Virus record (IMG/VR): IMGVR_UViG_3300005264_000016
Span: 1-40,735 of that record
Source: a virus
Reading direction: 5' to 3' (one strand)
Length of the DNA stretch: 40,735 bases
The position numbers and the translations under genes are program-made. Under the pieces are notes generated by a model that worked only from the letters and a program-made list of their open reading frames with translations, was not told where the DNA came from and made no database searches. Shown piece by piece: positions 17,421-32,770 of this stretch. Within the stretch, counting starts at the first letter, position 1, and the number at the start of each line of letters is the position of its first letter.

Positions 17421-17897
17421 ATGGCTATTATCAATGGGTATAGCAATTATACAGCAGCAGGACTTCAGAACCATGGAATGGCAGTAACAGATACAGCTTA
17501 TCAGCCTCCGGTAGCCAACGATGTTGTTGTTGGCCTTTGCTTACAAACCAACCCATTCCAGACAGGCTATGTACCCGGAACTGTGACAAGCGAGCCAATC
17601 GGAATTGGTGGTTACACAAGGGCTGTGGCAAAGAGTGGTGACCCTTCAGGAACGGGCGTGTGGACAGTATCGGCTCAGACAGATGTAACTGAAATAGAAA
17701 ATCAGGCATCGATCACTTTCAATGTTTCTACAGCTAGCTGGGGCACTGTTTATTATTTTGGTGTTTTTGATAATGCAGATCCAAATGTTGGCCAATTGAT
17801 ATGGGGAGCGGCAGTTACAACTCCAAAACTGATAGAGAATGAAACAGTAGTAGTTTTTACACCACAGGCTTTGAAAATAAAAGCTAGAAATGTGTAA
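17421..17897 (+). CDS. Small virion/tail-associated protein
   Basis: The 158-residue product starts after AAAGGGG. Its C-terminal half contains SWGTVYYFGVFDNADPNVG, then LIWGAA and a late VVFTPQALKIKA strand. This resembles a family of small phage structural proteins with the pattern WGTV--FGIFD---GG-LL--GAL. These are usually found next to tail fibre genes. A structural role in the tail is inferred from this resemblance and position; the precise function is unknown. Confidence 0.5.
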   Translation: MAIINGYSNYTAAGLQNHGMAVTDTAYQPPVANDVVVGLCLQTNPFQTGYVPGTVTSEPIGIGGYTRAVAKSGDPSGTGVWTVSAQTDVTEIENQASITFNVSTASWGTVYYFGVFDNADPNVGQLIWGAAVTTPKLIENETVVVFTPQALKIKARNV

Positions 17898-26892: not shown

Positions 26893-26936
26893 AGATGTAT
26901 TTAAAAAGTGACGAATTGATAATATCAAGGATGCTT

Positions 26937-27506
26937 ATGAAAAAATTTAAATGCATAGTGTGCAGCCATAAAGACAGAAAAGATATCAATGCCAGATTGT
27001 TAAGAGGTCAGTCTAATAATAGCGTAGCTAAGCTGTTCGGTCTTTCAGAGCCAACAGTACGCCGCCACCGTAACAAACACCTTGCTGATGTTGTCGTTAA
27101 TGCGATGGCACAGACACTAGAGAACTCTAAATCATTAGAAGATGCCGTGATGGCTAATAATAACGTTTTAGAGGTATACGGTAATAACAGTGCTGAATCT
27201 TTAAGTATGAAGAACTTTAAGGATATGCCATCTCCTTTAGAGGATATAGGATCACATATCAAATTTCTCTATGAGGAGGCCGTAGAGACGATGTTGTTTG
27301 CAAAAGCACAGTTAGATCAGAACCTAAAGCTAAAAGCGTTAAGGGACGCACGTGAGTGCTTGGTTTTAATCAAAAATGCTGCGGAATTACTAATGCACAA
27401 GGCACAAGATGATGAATTAGAAGTTTTAGTGGCTAAGATCTTGGATGCTGTTCACGACTTTCCTGAAGCAAGGGAAGCCATATCACTTAAACTGTTGGGG
27501 GAATAG
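26937..27506 (+). CDS. Small terminase subunit-like DNA-binding protein (zinc knuckle plus HTH)
   Basis: The product is 189 residues from ATG 26937, which has AAGGA at 26927-26931; codons at 26895 and 26931 are in frame but poorly placed. The N terminus carries C-x-x-C-x-H followed by a helix-turn-helix (SNNSVAKLFGLSEPTVRRHR, then NKHL), a pattern common in small DNA-binding proteins next to terminases. The remainder is helical (SHIKFLYEEAVETMLFAKAQ), as expected for oligomerisation. It is the first gene of the rightward packaging operon, four genes before the ATPase. It probably recognises the packaging site, but a transcription factor role is possible. Confidence 0.65.
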   Translation: MKKFKCIVCSHKDRKDINARLLRGQSNNSVAKLFGLSEPTVRRHRNKHLADVVVNAMAQTLENSKSLEDAVMANNNVLEVYGNNSAESLSMKNFKDMPSPLEDIGSHIKFLYEEAVETMLFAKAQLDQNLKLKALRDARECLVLIKNAAELLMHKAQDDELEVLVAKILDAVHDFPEAREAISLKLLGE

Positions 27507-27508
27507 TC

Positions 27509-27745
27509 ATGGGAAAAGACAATAGAAAGACTCAGAAAACTGTAAACGGAACACCTGTACAATGCCGAACAATAAACATGGGTAGCACATTGCAAGCGCT
27601 TATGGATGTTCTCGAGGAGCTTGGAGACACATCCATCATTACTCCGGGAATTGACTATGTCTTTAAGAAACAATGGCAAGCTTTAATGCAAAGGAATGAA
27701 ATATCTTTTGACGGCACTCAAATAGTTATAAAAAAATGGGGGTAA
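27509..27745 (+). CDS. Unknown small protein in the packaging operon
   Basis: The 78-residue product starts two bases after the upstream stop with GGGGGAAT before it. It has a basic N terminus (MGKDNRKTQKT), a helix (LQALMDVLEELG) and a C-terminal strand pair ending in IVIKKWG. No family was recognised. Tight spacing shows cotranscription with the terminase-like genes. Confidence 0.6.
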   Translation: MGKDNRKTQKTVNGTPVQCRTINMGSTLQALMDVLEELGDTSIITPGIDYVFKKQWQALMQRNEISFDGTQIVIKKWG

Positions 27746-27748
27746 GTG

Positions 27749-28099
27749 ATGTCAGAATATAGAATTAGAATAGGTAAACTGCTGGCCTATATGTATGATG
27801 TAAGTTCAATGGATAAATACCCAGATGAATTTTTCATGAAAATGATATGTGCTGTCGATTCGTCTATATGGAACGAAGATGAGATCTTAAATGATCCTGA
27901 CATCGACACCGAACAGGCTTGGTGTTTTTGTTACCACCATGCTCATGAAATATATTTAAAAATGATAATGAGGAAAGGTGGCCGAAAGACTTTTAAAAGA
28001 GGTGAGACTAGGAGGCCGACATTGGATTACCTTAAAGAATCTTATGAGAGGGCTAATAAGCACCTTATTAAGCTACTATACCCTTATTACGGAGGTTGA
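27749..28099 (+). CDS. Unknown acidic/helical protein
   Basis: The 116-residue product begins at ATG 27749; a GTG immediately upstream is also in frame but abuts the previous stop. It is helical, with a Cys/His/Tyr-rich patch (AWCFCYHHAHEIY) near residue 65 and a strongly basic stretch (MRKGGRKTFKRGETRR) that could contact nucleic acid. No family was recognised. It is one base from the next gene. Confidence 0.6.
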   Translation: MSEYRIRIGKLLAYMYDVSSMDKYPDEFFMKMICAVDSSIWNEDEILNDPDIDTEQAWCFCYHHAHEIYLKMIMRKGGRKTFKRGETRRPTLDYLKESYERANKHLIKLLYPYYGG

Positions 28100-28100
28100 T

Positions 28101-28406
28101 ATGGAAGTATCAAGTAAAGAAAAATGGCTGGTCAATGTTATGATCAAGTTCGTGGGCATGTCTGCATGGCGGTATGATTTCTTGAAGCAAATATATAAAT
28201 GTCTTTTACAAGCTAAAAACAAGCAGTTTAGCAGCAAAGATCTGAATTATTGTTTGCTCGATACACTGGCTTGGTTTGGATTTATCCTAGATAAAGAGGG
28301 CTGTCCAGAAATGAAATATAAAGAAGCAGTAGCCCTTTACGGTGATGTTTTCAGAGACTTCGACTGGATTGAGTTCCCCCCTGTCAAGAAAGATGATTTT
28401 AAATGA
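28101..28406 (+). CDS. Unknown small protein preceding the terminase ATPase
   Basis: The 101-residue product starts at ATG 28101, chosen because GGAGG lies at 28091-28095; a longer in-frame extension overlaps the upstream gene and has no such site. The sequence is helical with many aromatics (GMSAWRYDFLKQIYKCLL, CLLDTLAWFGFILD) and an acidic C terminus. It overlaps the ATPase gene by four bases (ATGA), so the two are translationally coupled. No family was recognised. Confidence 0.6.
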   Translation: MEVSSKEKWLVNVMIKFVGMSAWRYDFLKQIYKCLLQAKNKQFSSKDLNYCLLDTLAWFGFILDKEGCPEMKYKEAVALYGDVFRDFDWIEFPPVKKDDFK

Positions 28407-29176
28407 TCATTAATCAAGATAGGGCTCATTATTTAGCTCTTGCTGTAAATCCTTCTAAGTTTGCAGAGGTAGCTTTTGAGTTTAAGCCTGATGAATATCA
28501 AGATGGCGTGCTCAAACGACCAGATGCGGAGCAATTAATAGTGTGGTCAAGGCAGTTCGGTAAATCCGCCACCGTGGCAACTCTGTGCCTCCATACAGCC
28601 GTTTTTAACCCTGATAGTGTGGTTCTTGTAGCAGCTCAAAGAAAAGAGGTTGCACAGGAAATGATACGTAAGGCAAGAAAAGGGACAAGAATGTTGTGCG
28701 GTGGGTTTTTTCCTACTGTGAAGAAGGATAATGCAGGCAGCTTAGAGTTATCAAATGGGTCACGTATTATGGCCGTCTCAGGCAGCGAAAGTGGACCTCG
28801 TGGGTATACAGTTAACCTAGTAGTTATCGATGAGGCTTCTCGTGTACCTGAAGAGTATTACGAAGCCGTGACACCTACTCAATCGACAGTTAATAGACCT
28901 AAATTCATTGCCATGACAACACCATATGGCAGACGAGGTTGGTTTTGGGATTTATGGACTAAAAACACTGGGTGTTTTAAGCAGGTGTTGACCTACCATG
29001 ATTGCCCAAGAATAAGTGCTGATTTTATAGCGAAGGAAAAAGCAAGACTGCCTGATTATATTTTCAGGCAGGAATATCTGTGTGAATTTATCGACCCTAA
29101 ATCAGCAGTATTTGATTATGAAGACTTCATGGCCTGTATTAATGATAATATCGAAACAATAGGACTTAAATTTTAA
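28403..29176 (+). CDS. Terminase large subunit, ATPase half (split gene)
   Basis: The 257-residue product contains all terminase ATPase motifs: an adenine-binding PDEYQDGVL (29-37), Walker A SRQFGKSA (49-56), Walker B LVVIDE (139-144) and coupling motif AMTTP (170-174). It ends just after FRQEYLCEF and AVFDYEDF, the segment that in ordinary terminases leads into the nuclease domain. Full-length large subunits usually have 400-600 residues. The nuclease domain is absent here but is encoded separately at 30763-31371. The ATPase would pump DNA into the prohead through the portal. Its stop is followed at once by a new AGGAGG site, so the end looks like a genuine gene boundary. Confidence 0.88.
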   Translation: MIINQDRAHYLALAVNPSKFAEVAFEFKPDEYQDGVLKRPDAEQLIVWSRQFGKSATVATLCLHTAVFNPDSVVLVAAQRKEVAQEMIRKARKGTRMLCGGFFPTVKKDNAGSLELSNGSRIMAVSGSESGPRGYTVNLVVIDEASRVPEEYYEAVTPTQSTVNRPKFIAMTTPYGRRGWFWDLWTKNTGCFKQVLTYHDCPRISADFIAKEKARLPDYIFRQEYLCEFIDPKSAVFDYEDFMACINDNIETIGLKF

Positions 29177-29188
29177 AAGGAGGTCAGT

Positions 29189-29305
29189 ATGAGTGATATT
29201 GCAAGAGTCTATTTTGCCTTTAGCTACAATAAAGAGGTATGTAAGAAGGTTTTTGGTTTCGTCAAGGCTTCTGGTTATGAAGGGCATTTGTTTTGTACGT
29301 ATTAG
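29189..29305 (+). CDS. Miniprotein, 38 residues
   Basis: An ATG lies five bases after an AAAAGGAGG site and opens a 38-residue frame (MSDIARVYFAFSYNKEV at the start, ending GHLFCTY). The strong ribosome binding site and its tight position after the ATPase gene support translation. It has two cysteines and many aromatic residues. No family was recognised. It is the first of seven small genes that separate the two terminase parts. Confidence 0.5.
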   Translation: MSDIARVYFAFSYNKEVCKKVFGFVKASGYEGHLFCTY

Positions 29306-29339
29306 GGAAGAGATAAATATCTAAAGGGAGGCATATCTG

Positions 29340-29549
29340 ATGAGTAACGTATTCTATAGTACTTTTACAGCATTATGGTGGAGTGTTACATTATGGTTCT
29401 TATATTGCGTTTTAACGATGTCGTTGGCTAGCCGTTACAGCGGGATCAGCAACAAGAGAGCTATCAACAGGTGCGCTAAAGCAGCTCCTGCATTCTCATA
29501 TTTAGTACCCTTTACAATGGTTTTAATCTATTTATTCACCAGCACCTAA
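29340..29549 (+). CDS. Small membrane protein with two predicted spans
   Basis: The 69-residue product has two hydrophobic segments, about residues 9-31 (TALWWSVTLWFLYCVLTMSL) and 49-66 (APAFSYLVPFTMVLIYLF), with a short basic loop (RYSGISNKRAINRCAK) between. AAAGGGAGG precedes the start. The topology resembles class II holins and many small phage membrane proteins, but position within the packaging region gives no support for lysis. Function is unknown. Confidence 0.55.
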   Translation: MSNVFYSTFTALWWSVTLWFLYCVLTMSLASRYSGISNKRAINRCAKAAPAFSYLVPFTMVLIYLFTST

Positions 29550-29568
29550 ATTTTTTTTAAAAAAGTAC

Positions 29569-29574
29569 TTGACT
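29569..29574 (+). promoter_or_regulatory. TTGACT promoter-like block, copy 1
   Basis: TTGACT followed by CATAATATAAA lies after a T8 run. Nearly the same block, T-run then TTGACTTATAATAAAA, recurs at 34034-34066. The -10 at the standard 17-bp spacing is poor here, so the element may be an unusual promoter. It lies about 100 bp upstream of the gene at 29675. Confidence 0.35.
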
Positions 29575-29594
29575 CATAATATAAAGCAAGACAT

Positions 29595-29664
29595 GTTGTA
29601 ACCAGTGATTGTAGCAATAGTTGTAGCAACTATCATATGAACATTACCACAATACTTACCACAA
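29595..29664. repeat. Cluster of TTGTRRYAA-like short repeats
   Basis: Three direct copies (around 29596, 29609 and 29621) and two inverted copies (29644-29652 and 29656-29664) of a 9-bp TTGTRRYAA-like element lie in the leader of the gene at 29675, with 12-13-bp steps within each group. This spacing is near a helical turn. It may be an operator array or a packaging-site-like cluster. Confidence 0.35.
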
Positions 29665-29674
29665 AGGAGATAAT

Positions 29675-30049
29675 ATGAATCATTACAAAGGCTTACCAGA
29701 TCCTTCAATGTTAGGTTTGGACGACTGCAACACATTGGATGAAGCGTTAGGATTTTGTTTAGCTAGAGTTACTAACATAAGACTTAGGGCGATATCGATA
29801 AGAGCTGCACAGGGTATCAAGGAAGATCCTGTCGTGTCTTCCAGCGAAGCAAGAGATCTCTTTATCTCAACCACGGCACGTTGGGTTTTAAAGCTCGAAA
29901 CTGATTCTCACCTTATGAATAACTCTGATCTTGAAGAGTTCAACGATATATTAGCAAAGTCTTTAGAATCTCAAAGAAAACGGTATGTGCTTATTGGTAA
30001 ACTACATGATGCAATAATGACTGTAAACGGCTCGTTACTTCCTTGCTAA
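29675..30049 (+). CDS. Unknown helical protein in the terminase gap
   Basis: The 124-residue product follows an ACAAAGGAGATAAT leader of the type shared by other accessory genes here. It is helical (LDEALGFCLARVTNIRLRAI, SSSEARDLFISTTARWVLKL, SDLEEFNDILAKSLESQRKR). Several phage genes of this size and style encode regulators or anti-host proteins, but no family was recognised. It has its own promoter-like region and long leader, so it may be expressed separately from the packaging genes. Confidence 0.6.
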   Translation: MNHYKGLPDPSMLGLDDCNTLDEALGFCLARVTNIRLRAISIRAAQGIKEDPVVSSSEARDLFISTTARWVLKLETDSHLMNNSDLEEFNDILAKSLESQRKRYVLIGKLHDAIMTVNGSLLPC

Positions 30050-30071
30050 CGTCTTAAAAGTAGGAGTTTAT

Positions 30072-30182
30072 ATGGCAACTTTGGCTGTCGATTTTTCAGT
30101 AGGCTGTTCTGAGTGGTGTTCTTGGGGATGGATGTTTTTGAATGCCTTATGGTTTGGGTTTTTCGGTGACACTATTTGTTAA
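30072..30182 (+). CDS. Cys/Trp-rich miniprotein, paralog 1 (36 residues)
   Basis: ATG 30072 follows TAGGAG and opens a 36-residue frame with DFSVGCSEWCSW and a hydrophobic aromatic C-terminal half (MFLNALWFGFFGD). The core F-V-CS-W is shared with the next miniprotein. Length and hydrophobicity suggest a membrane-associated peptide. No family was recognised. The paired arrangement and ribosome binding sites make it likely to be real despite its size. Confidence 0.5.
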   Translation: MATLAVDFSVGCSEWCSWGWMFLNALWFGFFGDTIC

Positions 30183-30192
30183 GGAGGGTATT

Positions 30193-30291
30193 ATGACGAC
30201 TGAATTCTTAGAGTTTGCAGTGAGTTGTTCATCTTGGATTTGTGATATTTTTGGAGCAATGGCTGATCTTTACGAATGGTGGATTAACTAA
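30193..30291 (+). CDS. Cys/Trp-rich miniprotein, paralog 2 (32 residues)
   Basis: ATG 30193 lies after TAAGGAGGG, an excellent ribosome binding site, and opens a 32-residue frame with LEFAVSCSSWICDIFGAM and a tryptophan-rich end. It shares the F-V-CS-W core with its upstream neighbour. Its TAA overlaps the next ATG (TAATG), so it is translationally coupled to the gene at 30291. Function is unknown. Confidence 0.5.
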   Translation: MTTEFLEFAVSCSSWICDIFGAMADLYEWWIN

Positions 30292-30644
30292 TGTCAGAAT
30301 ATAAATGCGGATACCCAAGAATGAAGGTGCTTCCAGACCTAGTGGACTTCATGATCTTGTTTGAGACTGAACCTGAACAAGAGGCTGATGACACTTGTTG
30401 GTACCGCTACACGACTGAAAAAGATAAAGAAGATATTGTAGTAGAGGTTTTTTTTGATTTCTGTAATCCTTATTTTGCGATCTCAGCCAAACTCAACAAA
30501 AGGCATCTTTTTAGTTTAGAAAAAGGATCGTTAGAAGAAATAAAAATACATAATTCTAAGACAGGATCTTATCTACGTTGTCGTTTTTCAGATGGAGCGT
30601 GCTTGTATTATGAACCACGGCCATTTTATATATCGTGCTGGTAG
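30291..30644 (+). CDS. Unknown beta-rich protein in the terminase gap
   Basis: The 117-residue product starts in a TAATG overlap with the preceding miniprotein. It appears beta-rich with many aromatics and cysteines (DTCWYRYTTEKDKEDIVVEV, FFDFCNPYFAISAKL, SYLRCRFSDGACLYYEPRPF). It has no signal peptide or membrane span. No family was recognised. Confidence 0.55.
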   Translation: MSEYKCGYPRMKVLPDLVDFMILFETEPEQEADDTCWYRYTTEKDKEDIVVEVFFDFCNPYFAISAKLNKRHLFSLEKGSLEEIKIHNSKTGSYLRCRFSDGACLYYEPRPFYISCW

Positions 30645-30657
30645 TTAAGGAGGTGAA

Positions 30658-30723
30658 ATGTTTAAACCTAGAAGAGTAGTAGATGTGGACAAGTCCATTC
30701 TCATGCCTAGAGTTCATGGATGA
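30658..30723 (+). CDS. Possible 21-residue leader peptide before the nuclease gene
   Basis: ATG 30658 follows a strong AAGGAGGTGAA site and opens a 21-residue frame (MFKPRRVVDVDKSILMPRVH then Gly). Its end overlaps a second mini-frame from ATG 30716 of 14 residues that stops at 30760, two bases before the nuclease start. The chain of overlapping starts could couple translation into the nuclease gene. The ribosome binding site is convincing but the peptide itself has no recognisable content. Confidence 0.35.
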   Translation: MFKPRRVVDVDKSILMPRVHG

Positions 30724-30762
30724 TGCTGACTTGTTTTCAACGATTGAAATCAAGGATTAATA

Positions 30763-31371
30763 ATGGATAAAAGACTATTTATAGGGTTGGATTTAGGACA
30801 GCAATACGATTTTACCGTTATAACCGCTGTCAGTTCATACAGAACGGATCATCGTGAAATAACCCATACATTAGAGTACATTCACCGATTTCCACTCAAA
30901 ATGAGCTACTCAGTTATGGCAAACCAAGTGACGAGCTTCGTCACATCTTCAAGAGTCAAACTTTACAACCCTACTTTGATAGTCGACTTCACTGGGGTGG
31001 GTGCTCCGGTATATGATATGCTCGTCAAAAATGGACTCAAACCAGTTGCATTTACTATCACTGGTGGCACCCAACCTAACATCACAAATCGTCATAAAAT
31101 GTCAGTTCCTAAACGTGATATGGTGGCATCTTTGCAAATAGCACTGCAAAATCGCAACATAAAAATACCATCAAATATCAACGAGCTCGAGCAACTGAAA
31201 TCTGAAATTCAAAATTTCCATATAAAGATTGACAAAAGTTCGTCGACTACTTTTGGGGCATTGAGAGATAGCGTTCATGATGATATAATAATGGCTTTGT
31301 GTATGTCTATTTGGTACGCTGATTATGCATTGGTAGGGAAGCAATCACCATTTATAAAGGTAGGAAATTAA
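30763..31371 (+). CDS. Terminase large subunit, nuclease half (split gene)
   Basis: The 202-residue product is a stand-alone RNase-H-fold terminase nuclease. It opens with FIGLDLGQQYDFTVI (Asp10), continues with TLIVDFTGVGAPVYDML (Asp75) and ends its core with SVHDDIIMALCMSIW (Asp173/Asp174), the three acidic groups that bind the metals for concatemer cutting. The ATPase domain is absent and is encoded 1.6 kb upstream. The product starts directly at the domain's first strand, so the break falls in the interdomain linker. The two proteins presumably form a two-chain large terminase. The portal gene follows one base later. Confidence 0.85.
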   Translation: MDKRLFIGLDLGQQYDFTVITAVSSYRTDHREITHTLEYIHRFPLKMSYSVMANQVTSFVTSSRVKLYNPTLIVDFTGVGAPVYDMLVKNGLKPVAFTITGGTQPNITNRHKMSVPKRDMVASLQIALQNRNIKIPSNINELEQLKSEIQNFHIKIDKSSSTTFGALRDSVHDDIIMALCMSIWYADYALVGKQSPFIKVGN

Positions 31372-31372
31372 A

Positions 31373-32770
31373 ATGACAGAAGTTAAAAAACCGGCTGTTT
31401 TCACGTCTCGAGATTTTTGGGACCCGAGTTTGAATAAGGAAAAAATATTATACGATGCTTTGGGGTTCCCTCAGAAAATAGCATATAAGGACTATCTTAG
31501 AAGATACAAGAGACAAGAGGTTGCGCATAGGATCATCAAGGCTCCAGCAACAGCTACTTGGTCTGACACTCCAGAGATTTATGACAACACCAAAACAGAA
31601 GGTCCTGAAGGAAAAGTGAATAGATCAACGTTTGAATTAGCATTTGATTTATTAGCTAACGAACTCAAATTGTTCGGTAATTTAAAGAAGTTAGACATTC
31701 TGGCATCATTAGGCAGGTTCGCTATTTTGATGCTTGGGTACAACTCTGACTCTGTGTCTGTATTGGCACCCGTCACGGCGTCAGATAAGCTTGTATATGT
31801 CAAACCTATAAGCGAAGAGCACGTGACTGTTTTGTCTTGGGATTACGATCCGACATCAGAAAGATACGGATGGCCTAAGATTTATCAGATCGAGGTGGCT
31901 ACCGATTCCGAAGAGAGCAGGACTATTCAGGTTCATTGGTCAAGAGTTATCCACGTTGCAATAGATACCCTTGATGAAGAGCTTTATGGGATACCGGCAA
32001 TGGAGCCTATTTATAATAGACTCATTGGGTTGGACAAGATAGCTGGGTCTGCTCCTGAAGGTTATTTGTTAGGTGCAAGAGGTGGGTTTGTATGTAAGGC
32101 GTCAGAACATTCAGCTTCTCTCACGGACGATGAAAAAAAGGCTATATCCAACGAATTGAACTTATATTTTGAACAGCAGAAAAGGACTCTTACGGTCGAT
32201 GGCTTGGACATTCAAGAGCTTAAGCCTCAAGTTATTTCACCAAAAGAGCAGATTGATGTTCAGTTGAGATTAATTAGTGCTCAAACGAACATACCTGTAA
32301 GGATATTGACTGGTTCTGAAAGAGGTGAATTGGCATCATCTCAAGATGAAAGGGGTTGGCTAAAATACATAGAACAGCGAAGAAATGAGGTGGCAGAAGG
32401 GTCTATGTTGACACCATTAGTAGAGAAGCTAATCTTCAATGGAACGCTGCCAGAACCTGTTGGTGGCTTTTACTTTACATGGAAGCCGTTGCTAGTCCTT
32501 ACAGACAAAGAAAAGGCCGAGATAGCTGAATTAAACATAAAGGTTCTAGATACTTATGCGTCCAATCCAACTGCTATGGCTATATATCCACCGGAGTTCT
32601 TTTTCAGAGATTTCTTTGGTAAAACGAATGAAGAGATACTAGAAATGGAACAAGCGTCTAACCTAGTGGACGATGATGCGTTTTTAGATGAGGATTTAAA
32701 GGAATACCCAGATGAAATCGAAGAGCAAAAGAATAGTAAAGAAGGAACAAAAAAAGTCGACAGACCCTAA
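31373..32770 (+). CDS. Portal protein (DUF1073-like)
   Basis: The 465-residue product resembles DUF1073-type portal proteins. Supporting segments are YLRRYKRQEVAHRIIKAPA, a body with HWSRVIHVAIDTLDEELYGIP, LEPIYNRL-like helix, then SAQTNIPVRILTGSERGELASSQDE and WLKYIEQRRNEV near residues 300-345. The portal is the dodecameric vertex ring through which DNA is packaged and to which the tail attaches. It is directly downstream of the terminase nuclease, the normal order. The C terminus is acidic and overlaps the next gene by 59 bases. Confidence 0.85.
   Translation: MTEVKKPAVFTSRDFWDPSLNKEKILYDALGFPQKIAYKDYLRRYKRQEVAHRIIKAPATATWSDTPEIYDNTKTEGPEGKVNRSTFELAFDLLANELKLFGNLKKLDILASLGRFAILMLGYNSDSVSVLAPVTASDKLVYVKPISEEHVTVLSWDYDPTSERYGWPKIYQIEVATDSEESRTIQVHWSRVIHVAIDTLDEELYGIPAMEPIYNRLIGLDKIAGSAPEGYLLGARGGFVCKASEHSASLTDDEKKAISNELNLYFEQQKRTLTVDGLDIQELKPQVISPKEQIDVQLRLISAQTNIPVRILTGSERGELASSQDERGWLKYIEQRRNEVAEGSMLTPLVEKLIFNGTLPEPVGGFYFTWKPLLVLTDKEKAEIAELNIKVLDTYASNPTAMAIYPPEFFFRDFFGKTNEEILEMEQASNLVDDDAFLDEDLKEYPDEIEEQKNSKEGTKKVDRP

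What the first reader, a model, noticed from the sequence alone, without database searches (positions are those of the whole stretch)
28403..31371. Large terminase encoded as two separate genes 1.6 kb apart
Seen: 28403-29176 has every ATPase motif (Walker A, Walker B, coupling motif) and stops right after the FRQEYLCEF/AVFDYED linker. 30763-31371 starts at the first strand of the RNase-H-fold nuclease (GLDLG, VDFTGVG, HDDI) and has no ATPase. Known: large terminases are normally one chain with both domains. Inference: this phage uses a two-chain packaging motor, split exactly at the linker, and the gap has been filled with small genes that each have a ribosome binding site. Neither end shows intein or intron sequence. 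Separate genes would allow the nuclease to be dosed or timed apart from the motor.
Basis: partly seen in the sequence, partly recalled or inferred. Interest (0 to 1): 0.78.

Follow-up and report, generated by a model that had tools for sequence, protein, structure and literature searches.

The report
Phage packaging motor in two genes
The enzyme that pumps phage DNA into the capsid and then cuts it is normally one protein, but here the pump and the cutter are two separate genes, and the same arrangement turns out to be common in a large, poorly recognised group of phages and prophages, which makes it possible to test whether the two parts need to be joined at all.

Summary
28403-29176 encodes a complete terminase ATPase and 30763-31371 a complete RNase-H-fold terminase nuclease. 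No full-length terminase is present, and no intron or intein was found. Misassembly is very unlikely: an independent contig with a syntenic, circularly permuted genome (ATPase 76%, nuclease 62% identical) has the same break with 7.9 kb between the genes, and two more distant phages with related portals have 2.5 and 2.0 kb. Reading it as a private oddity of this phage is too narrow. About 90 loci in viruses, prophages and plasmids, from at least six bacterial phyla and MAGs labelled archaeal, carry this ATPase and nuclease as two genes, usually adjacent or overlapping. In four related phages, this one included, unrelated small genes have also pushed the two apart. Other lineages put the nuclease first or carry tandem nuclease genes. 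Public resources leave the nuclease unnamed (PHROG 'unknown function', RefSeq 'hypothetical protein'). Best explanation: a two-chain large terminase whose nuclease acts in trans. The sequence facts are solid; complex formation and function are inferred. In T4 the domain hinge is reported essential for packaging, so this natural exception is directly testable. New variant of a known kind.

The parts
26895..27506 (+). Probable small terminase (TerS), HTH protein, 203 aa
   Evidence: Homologs directly upstream of the ATPase gene in about 20 split and fused loci; 59% identical protein in G001. No Pfam or PHROG hit over cut-off, so the name rests on position and homology
27509..28406 (+). Three small ORFs between TerS and the ATPase (27509-27745, 27746-28099, one ending at 28406 with uncertain start)
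   Evidence: ORF list; no family hits
28403..29176 (+). Large terminase ATPase subunit, 257 aa: Walker A SRQFGKS, Walker B LVVIDEA, motif III TTPYG, ends 32 residues after RQEY
   Evidence: Pfam and PHROG, profile vs PDB, AF2 and Foldseek, alignment of 39 relatives
29189..30723 (+). Inserted small ORFs: 29189-29305, 29340-29549, 29675-30049, 30072-30182, 30193-30291, 30291-30644, 30658-30723; only 30291-30644 has a relative in the G001 gap
   Evidence: Sequence and ORFs; no family hits; tblastx between gaps
30763..31371 (+). Large terminase nuclease subunit, 202 aa, RNase-H fold, catalytic D10, D75, D174 (HDD)
   Evidence: phrog_27743, profile vs PDB, AF2 and Foldseek, alignment of 43 relatives, G20c active site
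31373..32770 (+). Portal protein, directly after the nuclease gene
   Evidence: Phage_portal_3 1.1e-29 and phrog_146 2.4e-56; related portals in G001, L177, L180

Best explanation
This is a functional large terminase made as two polypeptides. The ATPase chain forms the portal-docked ring that translocates DNA; the nuclease chain is recruited in trans, perhaps through the conserved C-terminal tail of the ATPase, TerS or the portal, to make the first and last cuts. The two-gene state is shared by a large TerL lineage in which the genes usually touch; in this phage group a variable block of small genes has additionally entered between them. Shown: two intact, conserved, separately startable genes with complete active sites, found across many genomes. 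Inferred: that the two chains work together in one motor, and how they dock.
For: Complete ATPase and nuclease with conserved catalytic residues. Same break in G001, L177 and L180. About 90 two-gene loci: 65 plus 25 new. Purifying selection on both genes, pN/pS 0.21 and 0.29. Correlated divergence of the two subunits, r = 0.69, 0 of 2000 permutations. TerS and portal beside them. No other terminase ATPase in the record.
Against: No experiment shows that the two chains meet or that DNA is packaged. In T4 the separated domains lose translocation (PMC9958956). Correlated divergence can come from shared descent alone. Most loci are MAG or viral contigs. Five loci have an ATPase with no recognised nuclease; three of them end close by, two do not.
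Confidence: 0.8

Rival explanations
1. The two coding regions are joined after transcription or translation (trans-splicing intron, split intein, frameshift or stop readthrough), so that a one-chain terminase is made after all.
For: Inteins do occur in this ATPase family: L189 carries two, one of them in the RQEY-C motif close to the split point. In some other loci the nuclease frame follows the ATPase stop in the same frame.
Against: No intron in Rfam; no intein sequence at either end; own start, stop and ribosome-binding site for both genes; gaps of 1.6-7.9 kb exclude readthrough here; in L099 the nuclease comes before the ATPase.
Confidence: 0.04
2. The nuclease chain is no longer part of packaging but works as a free resolvase or nuclease in replication, and the ATPase packages alone or with another nuclease.
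For: The fold is RuvC-like. The nuclease diverges faster than the ATPase (62% against 76%). It is physically separated from the ATPase gene here.
Against: Closest profile and fold matches are terminase nucleases; it sits directly before the portal in the window and G001 and next to the ATPase in most loci; the two diverge together.
Confidence: 0.12
3. Assembly error or decaying gene: the split is an artefact of the contig or a remnant of a broken terL.
For: Only contigs were available, no reads; the window has just one close relative.
Against: Independent contig G001 is syntenic around a full circle and has the same break; purifying selection on both genes; about 90 loci with the two-gene form.
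Confidence: 0.02

Closest known systems
TerL of Thermus phages P74-26 / G20c
   Same: Same two domains; ATPase profile 1.9e-21 to 4zni, nuclease profile about 4e-16 to 5m1f/5m1q; same catalytic aspartates
   Different: One chain there; two genes here
TerL of Meiothermus phage MMP17 and Thermus phage Riverbug
   Same: Closest isolate-phage ATPases, about 37% identical, with related TerS upstream
   Different: Fused, 415-417 aa, 36-residue linker
PHROG families 7579 (ATPase only) and 27743 (nuclease only, unknown function)
   Same: Both subunits match; relatives such as L093 match at 2.9e-65 and 3.6e-42
   Different: PHROG does not link the two, and leaves 27743 without a function
T4 gp17
   Same: Best fold match of the ATPase (3.5e-14)
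   Different: Single chain whose hinge is reported essential for packaging (PMC9958956)
phi29-type packaging ATPase
   Same: Packaging ATPase chain without an active nuclease domain
   Different: Different ATPase family with a vestigial nuclease (PMC7672431, abstract only); here an active-looking nuclease is kept as a second gene

Membership tests
Tailed-phage large terminase (TerL) | Walker A/B and motif III ATPase of the terminase fold | tested here: met
   Pfam, profile vs PDB, AF2 with Foldseek
Tailed-phage large terminase (TerL) | RNase-H-fold nuclease with three catalytic acids | tested here: met
   D10, D75, D174 align with G20c D294, D347, D429; AF2 with Foldseek
Tailed-phage large terminase (TerL) | Both domains in one chain | tested here: not met
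   Two genes 1.6 kb apart, same in G001
Tailed-phage large terminase (TerL) | Packages and cuts DNA at the portal | not testable with these tools
   Needs biochemistry
Two-gene TerL group described here | ATPase ORF ending shortly after RQEY plus a separate nuclease ORF beginning at GxDLG | tested here: met
   65 + 25 loci
Two-gene TerL group described here | Single evolutionary origin | tested here: not met
   AU test rejects the split rows as one clade on a quick tree; several split/fused changes needed
terL interrupted by intron, intein or homing endonuclease | Intron RNA, intein or homing endonuclease between or at the parts | tested here: not met
   Rfam, Pfam and PHROG on gap ORFs, end sequences

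The most novel reading that the evidence does not exclude
A packaging motor in which a free ATPase ring translocates DNA with no covalently attached nuclease domain, and an exchangeable nuclease subunit, in some lineages two or three paralogs, docks in trans only for cutting. Gene order, copy number and fusion state are then freely rearranged across phages of many bacterial phyla and of MAGs labelled archaeal.
Probability: 0.5. Interest if true: 0.85.

Novelty: new variant of a known kind. Interest (0 to 1): 0.72.

Why it matters
Models of the T4-type motor move DNA by having the ATPase pull on a tethered nuclease domain through a hinge, and T4 loses translocation when the hinge is absent (PMC9958956). 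A widespread natural terminase with no covalent tether gives a direct test of whether that tether is needed, and lets the cutting subunit be removed or exchanged without touching the motor gene. It also gives a likely function to a nuclease family that databases leave unnamed (PHROG 27743; RefSeq 'hypothetical protein'), and warns that terminase-based annotation in this lineage sees only half of the enzyme.

Tried and rejected
Two PHROG families seemed to prove published split terminases, but in MMP7 the two annotated pieces come from a gene cut by the record's origin, so that record is not counted. Intron, intein, frameshift, misassembly and a second terminase: rejected. Split as a single clade: rejected by an AU test on a quick tree; the trees need 7-8 changes between split and fused, of which starred branches force 2-4. 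Close-relative scans found only G001. Defence function of gap genes: nothing among the window gap ORFs tested, only a methyltransferase in the G001 gap. Literature searches for a described two-gene large terminase found none in the open-access library; most subscription papers are not in it. From memory, some actinophage annotations use separate names for terminase ATPase and nuclease domains; the one record I tried, Jay2Jay, annotates one large subunit, so this stays unverified.

Full report
OBSERVATION. The first (257 aa) has Walker A SRQFGKS, Walker B LVVIDEA and motif III TTPYG, passes the Pfam cut-off for Terminase_6N and stops 32 residues after RQEY. The second (202 aa) has seven residues before GLDLG and carries VDFTGVG and HDD. 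Pfam sees it only weakly, but a profile from 43 relatives matches the crystallised G20c terminase nuclease at about 4e-16, and the predicted structure (pLDDT 90) has that nuclease as its best PDB match, followed by HK97 TerL, RuvC and HCMV UL89. The ATPase model (pLDDT 90) matches the T4 gp17 and P74-26 ATPase domains. G20c needs D294, D347 and D429 for cutting (PMC5389553); the aligned residues here are D10, D75 and D174. From RQEY to GLDLG the two chains together have 39 residues, against 36-65 in fused relatives, so no part of the enzyme is missing.

REALITY OF THE SPLIT. The window is a whole 40.7 kb virus record. Another IMG/VR contig, G001 (46.7 kb), is syntenic with it around a full circle. 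Its ATPase gene (76% identical) ends at the same residue, and its nuclease gene (62%) lies 7.9 kb downstream, just before the portal. Both genes are under purifying selection at least as strong as portal and TerS; synonymous sites are near saturation, so only the ratio of proportions is used. Misassembly and decay are therefore very unlikely. No intron or intein was found, and no second terminase ATPase.

BREADTH. A four-sequence ATPase profile was used to scan viral contigs and bacterial genomes. Classifying stop-to-stop ORFs with ATPase and nuclease HMMs gave 65 loci with two separate ORFs, 13 fused, 8 with a long tail that this nuclease model does not recognise, and 5 with an ATPase and no nuclease found. 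The 65 include the window, G001 and three Salinibacter plasmids. A separate scan started from the nuclease profile gave 29 split viral contigs, 25 of them new; among those with a nuclease score over 100 bits and an ATPase in view only one (L183) was fused. A few of these have unusual ATPase tails and were not checked one by one. Sampling followed sequence patterns, so these are counts, not frequencies. Hosts include Acidobacteriota, Planctomycetota, Pseudomonadota, Bacillota, Rhodothermota, candidate division NPL-UPA2 and MAGs labelled archaeal (MAG labels can be wrong). In most loci the nuclease ORF overlaps or directly follows the ATPase ORF. Those examined are phage-like: tape measure and neck genes in L111, an integrase in L093, a portal in L011, head-tail adaptors in L013 and L014. 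Salinibacter plasmids pSR11, pSR14 and pSR31 carry the pair too; RefSeq calls the ATPase 'terminase family protein' and the nuclease 'hypothetical protein'.

WHAT IS SPECIAL HERE. L177 and L180 share portal homologs with the window (45% and 42%) and also have displaced nucleases, 2.5 and 2.0 kb from the ATPase. With G001 that makes four related phages in which different small genes occupy the space; in the ATPase tree they fall together, but with weak support (33). Only one gap gene, the one directly upstream of the nuclease, is shared between window and G001, and none with L177 or L180. Larger gaps also occur elsewhere (L102, L145), so the space looks like a place where genes accumulate once the two ORFs are independent.

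MODULARITY. The TerS candidate (26895-27506) has homologs directly upstream of the ATPase gene in about 20 loci, split and fused. In L099 the order is nuclease, TerS, ATPase. L153 has three nuclease ORFs in tandem, pSR31 two, L108 one full and one partial. ATPase and nuclease distances correlate (r = 0.69, 0 of 2000 permutations), as expected for partners, though shared descent alone also gives correlation. Split and fused forms are interleaved in the ATPase tree, and an AU test rejects the split rows as one clade. One fused acidobacterial linker (L117) keeps the 'DDV.PL' tail of the standalone ATPase followed by extra residues, which looks like re-fusion; the direction of change is not proven.

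MECHANISM. Best reading: ATPase ring on the portal, nuclease supplied in trans, possibly docking through the conserved ATPase tail. The tail as a docking peptide is a guess: its pLDDT is only 60-71. The main objection is T4, where domains without the hinge keep their own activities but lose translocation (PMC9958956). Either these motors bind the two chains tightly without a covalent link, or this ATPase does not need the nuclease domain to move DNA. Both are testable.

NOVELTY. The parts are known; the two-chain arrangement is a new variant. I found no description in the searchable literature, which covers open-access papers only. tblastn of the nuclease subunits against 50,697 phage records found four records: Riverbug and MMP17 with a single-chain TerL, MMP7, whose two annotated pieces come from the record origin, and Tunturi_4, annotated as one large subunit.

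Noticed in passing
L189:6403-9579: The ATPase ORF of this viral contig carries two intein-like insertions, one after PTQRQ and one inside the RQEY-C motif, close to the point where the family is split.
   Followed up: partly
L153:10688-12730; L108:10881-11989; L175:5178-6436: Two or three nuclease ORFs in tandem behind a single ATPase gene (one of the two in L108 is partial); in the second and third copies of L153 and both of pSR31 the His of the HDD motif is replaced.
   Followed up: partly
L099:8885-10810: Gene order nuclease, TerS, ATPase: the nuclease lies upstream of the ATPase.
   Followed up: partly
L122, L127, L131, L134, L135, L136, L141, L151: Planctomycete TerLs with a related ATPase fused to a C-terminal part (GGIDFGWRNPFAA) that the nuclease model of this group does not recognise; possibly a different nuclease family.
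   Followed up: no
L006:16953-17830 (G001 gap): DNA methyltransferase gene (PF01555) in the G001 gap looks broken: its last part seems to continue in another ORF at 17678-17830.
   Followed up: no
L145:10694-11930: The space between ATPase and nuclease is filled with short repeats (accacagagaacacagag-like) around one small ORF.
   Followed up: no
MK071653.1 (Meiothermus phage MMP7): terL is cut by the record's origin and annotated as two proteins, a source of false split-terminase entries.
   Followed up: yes
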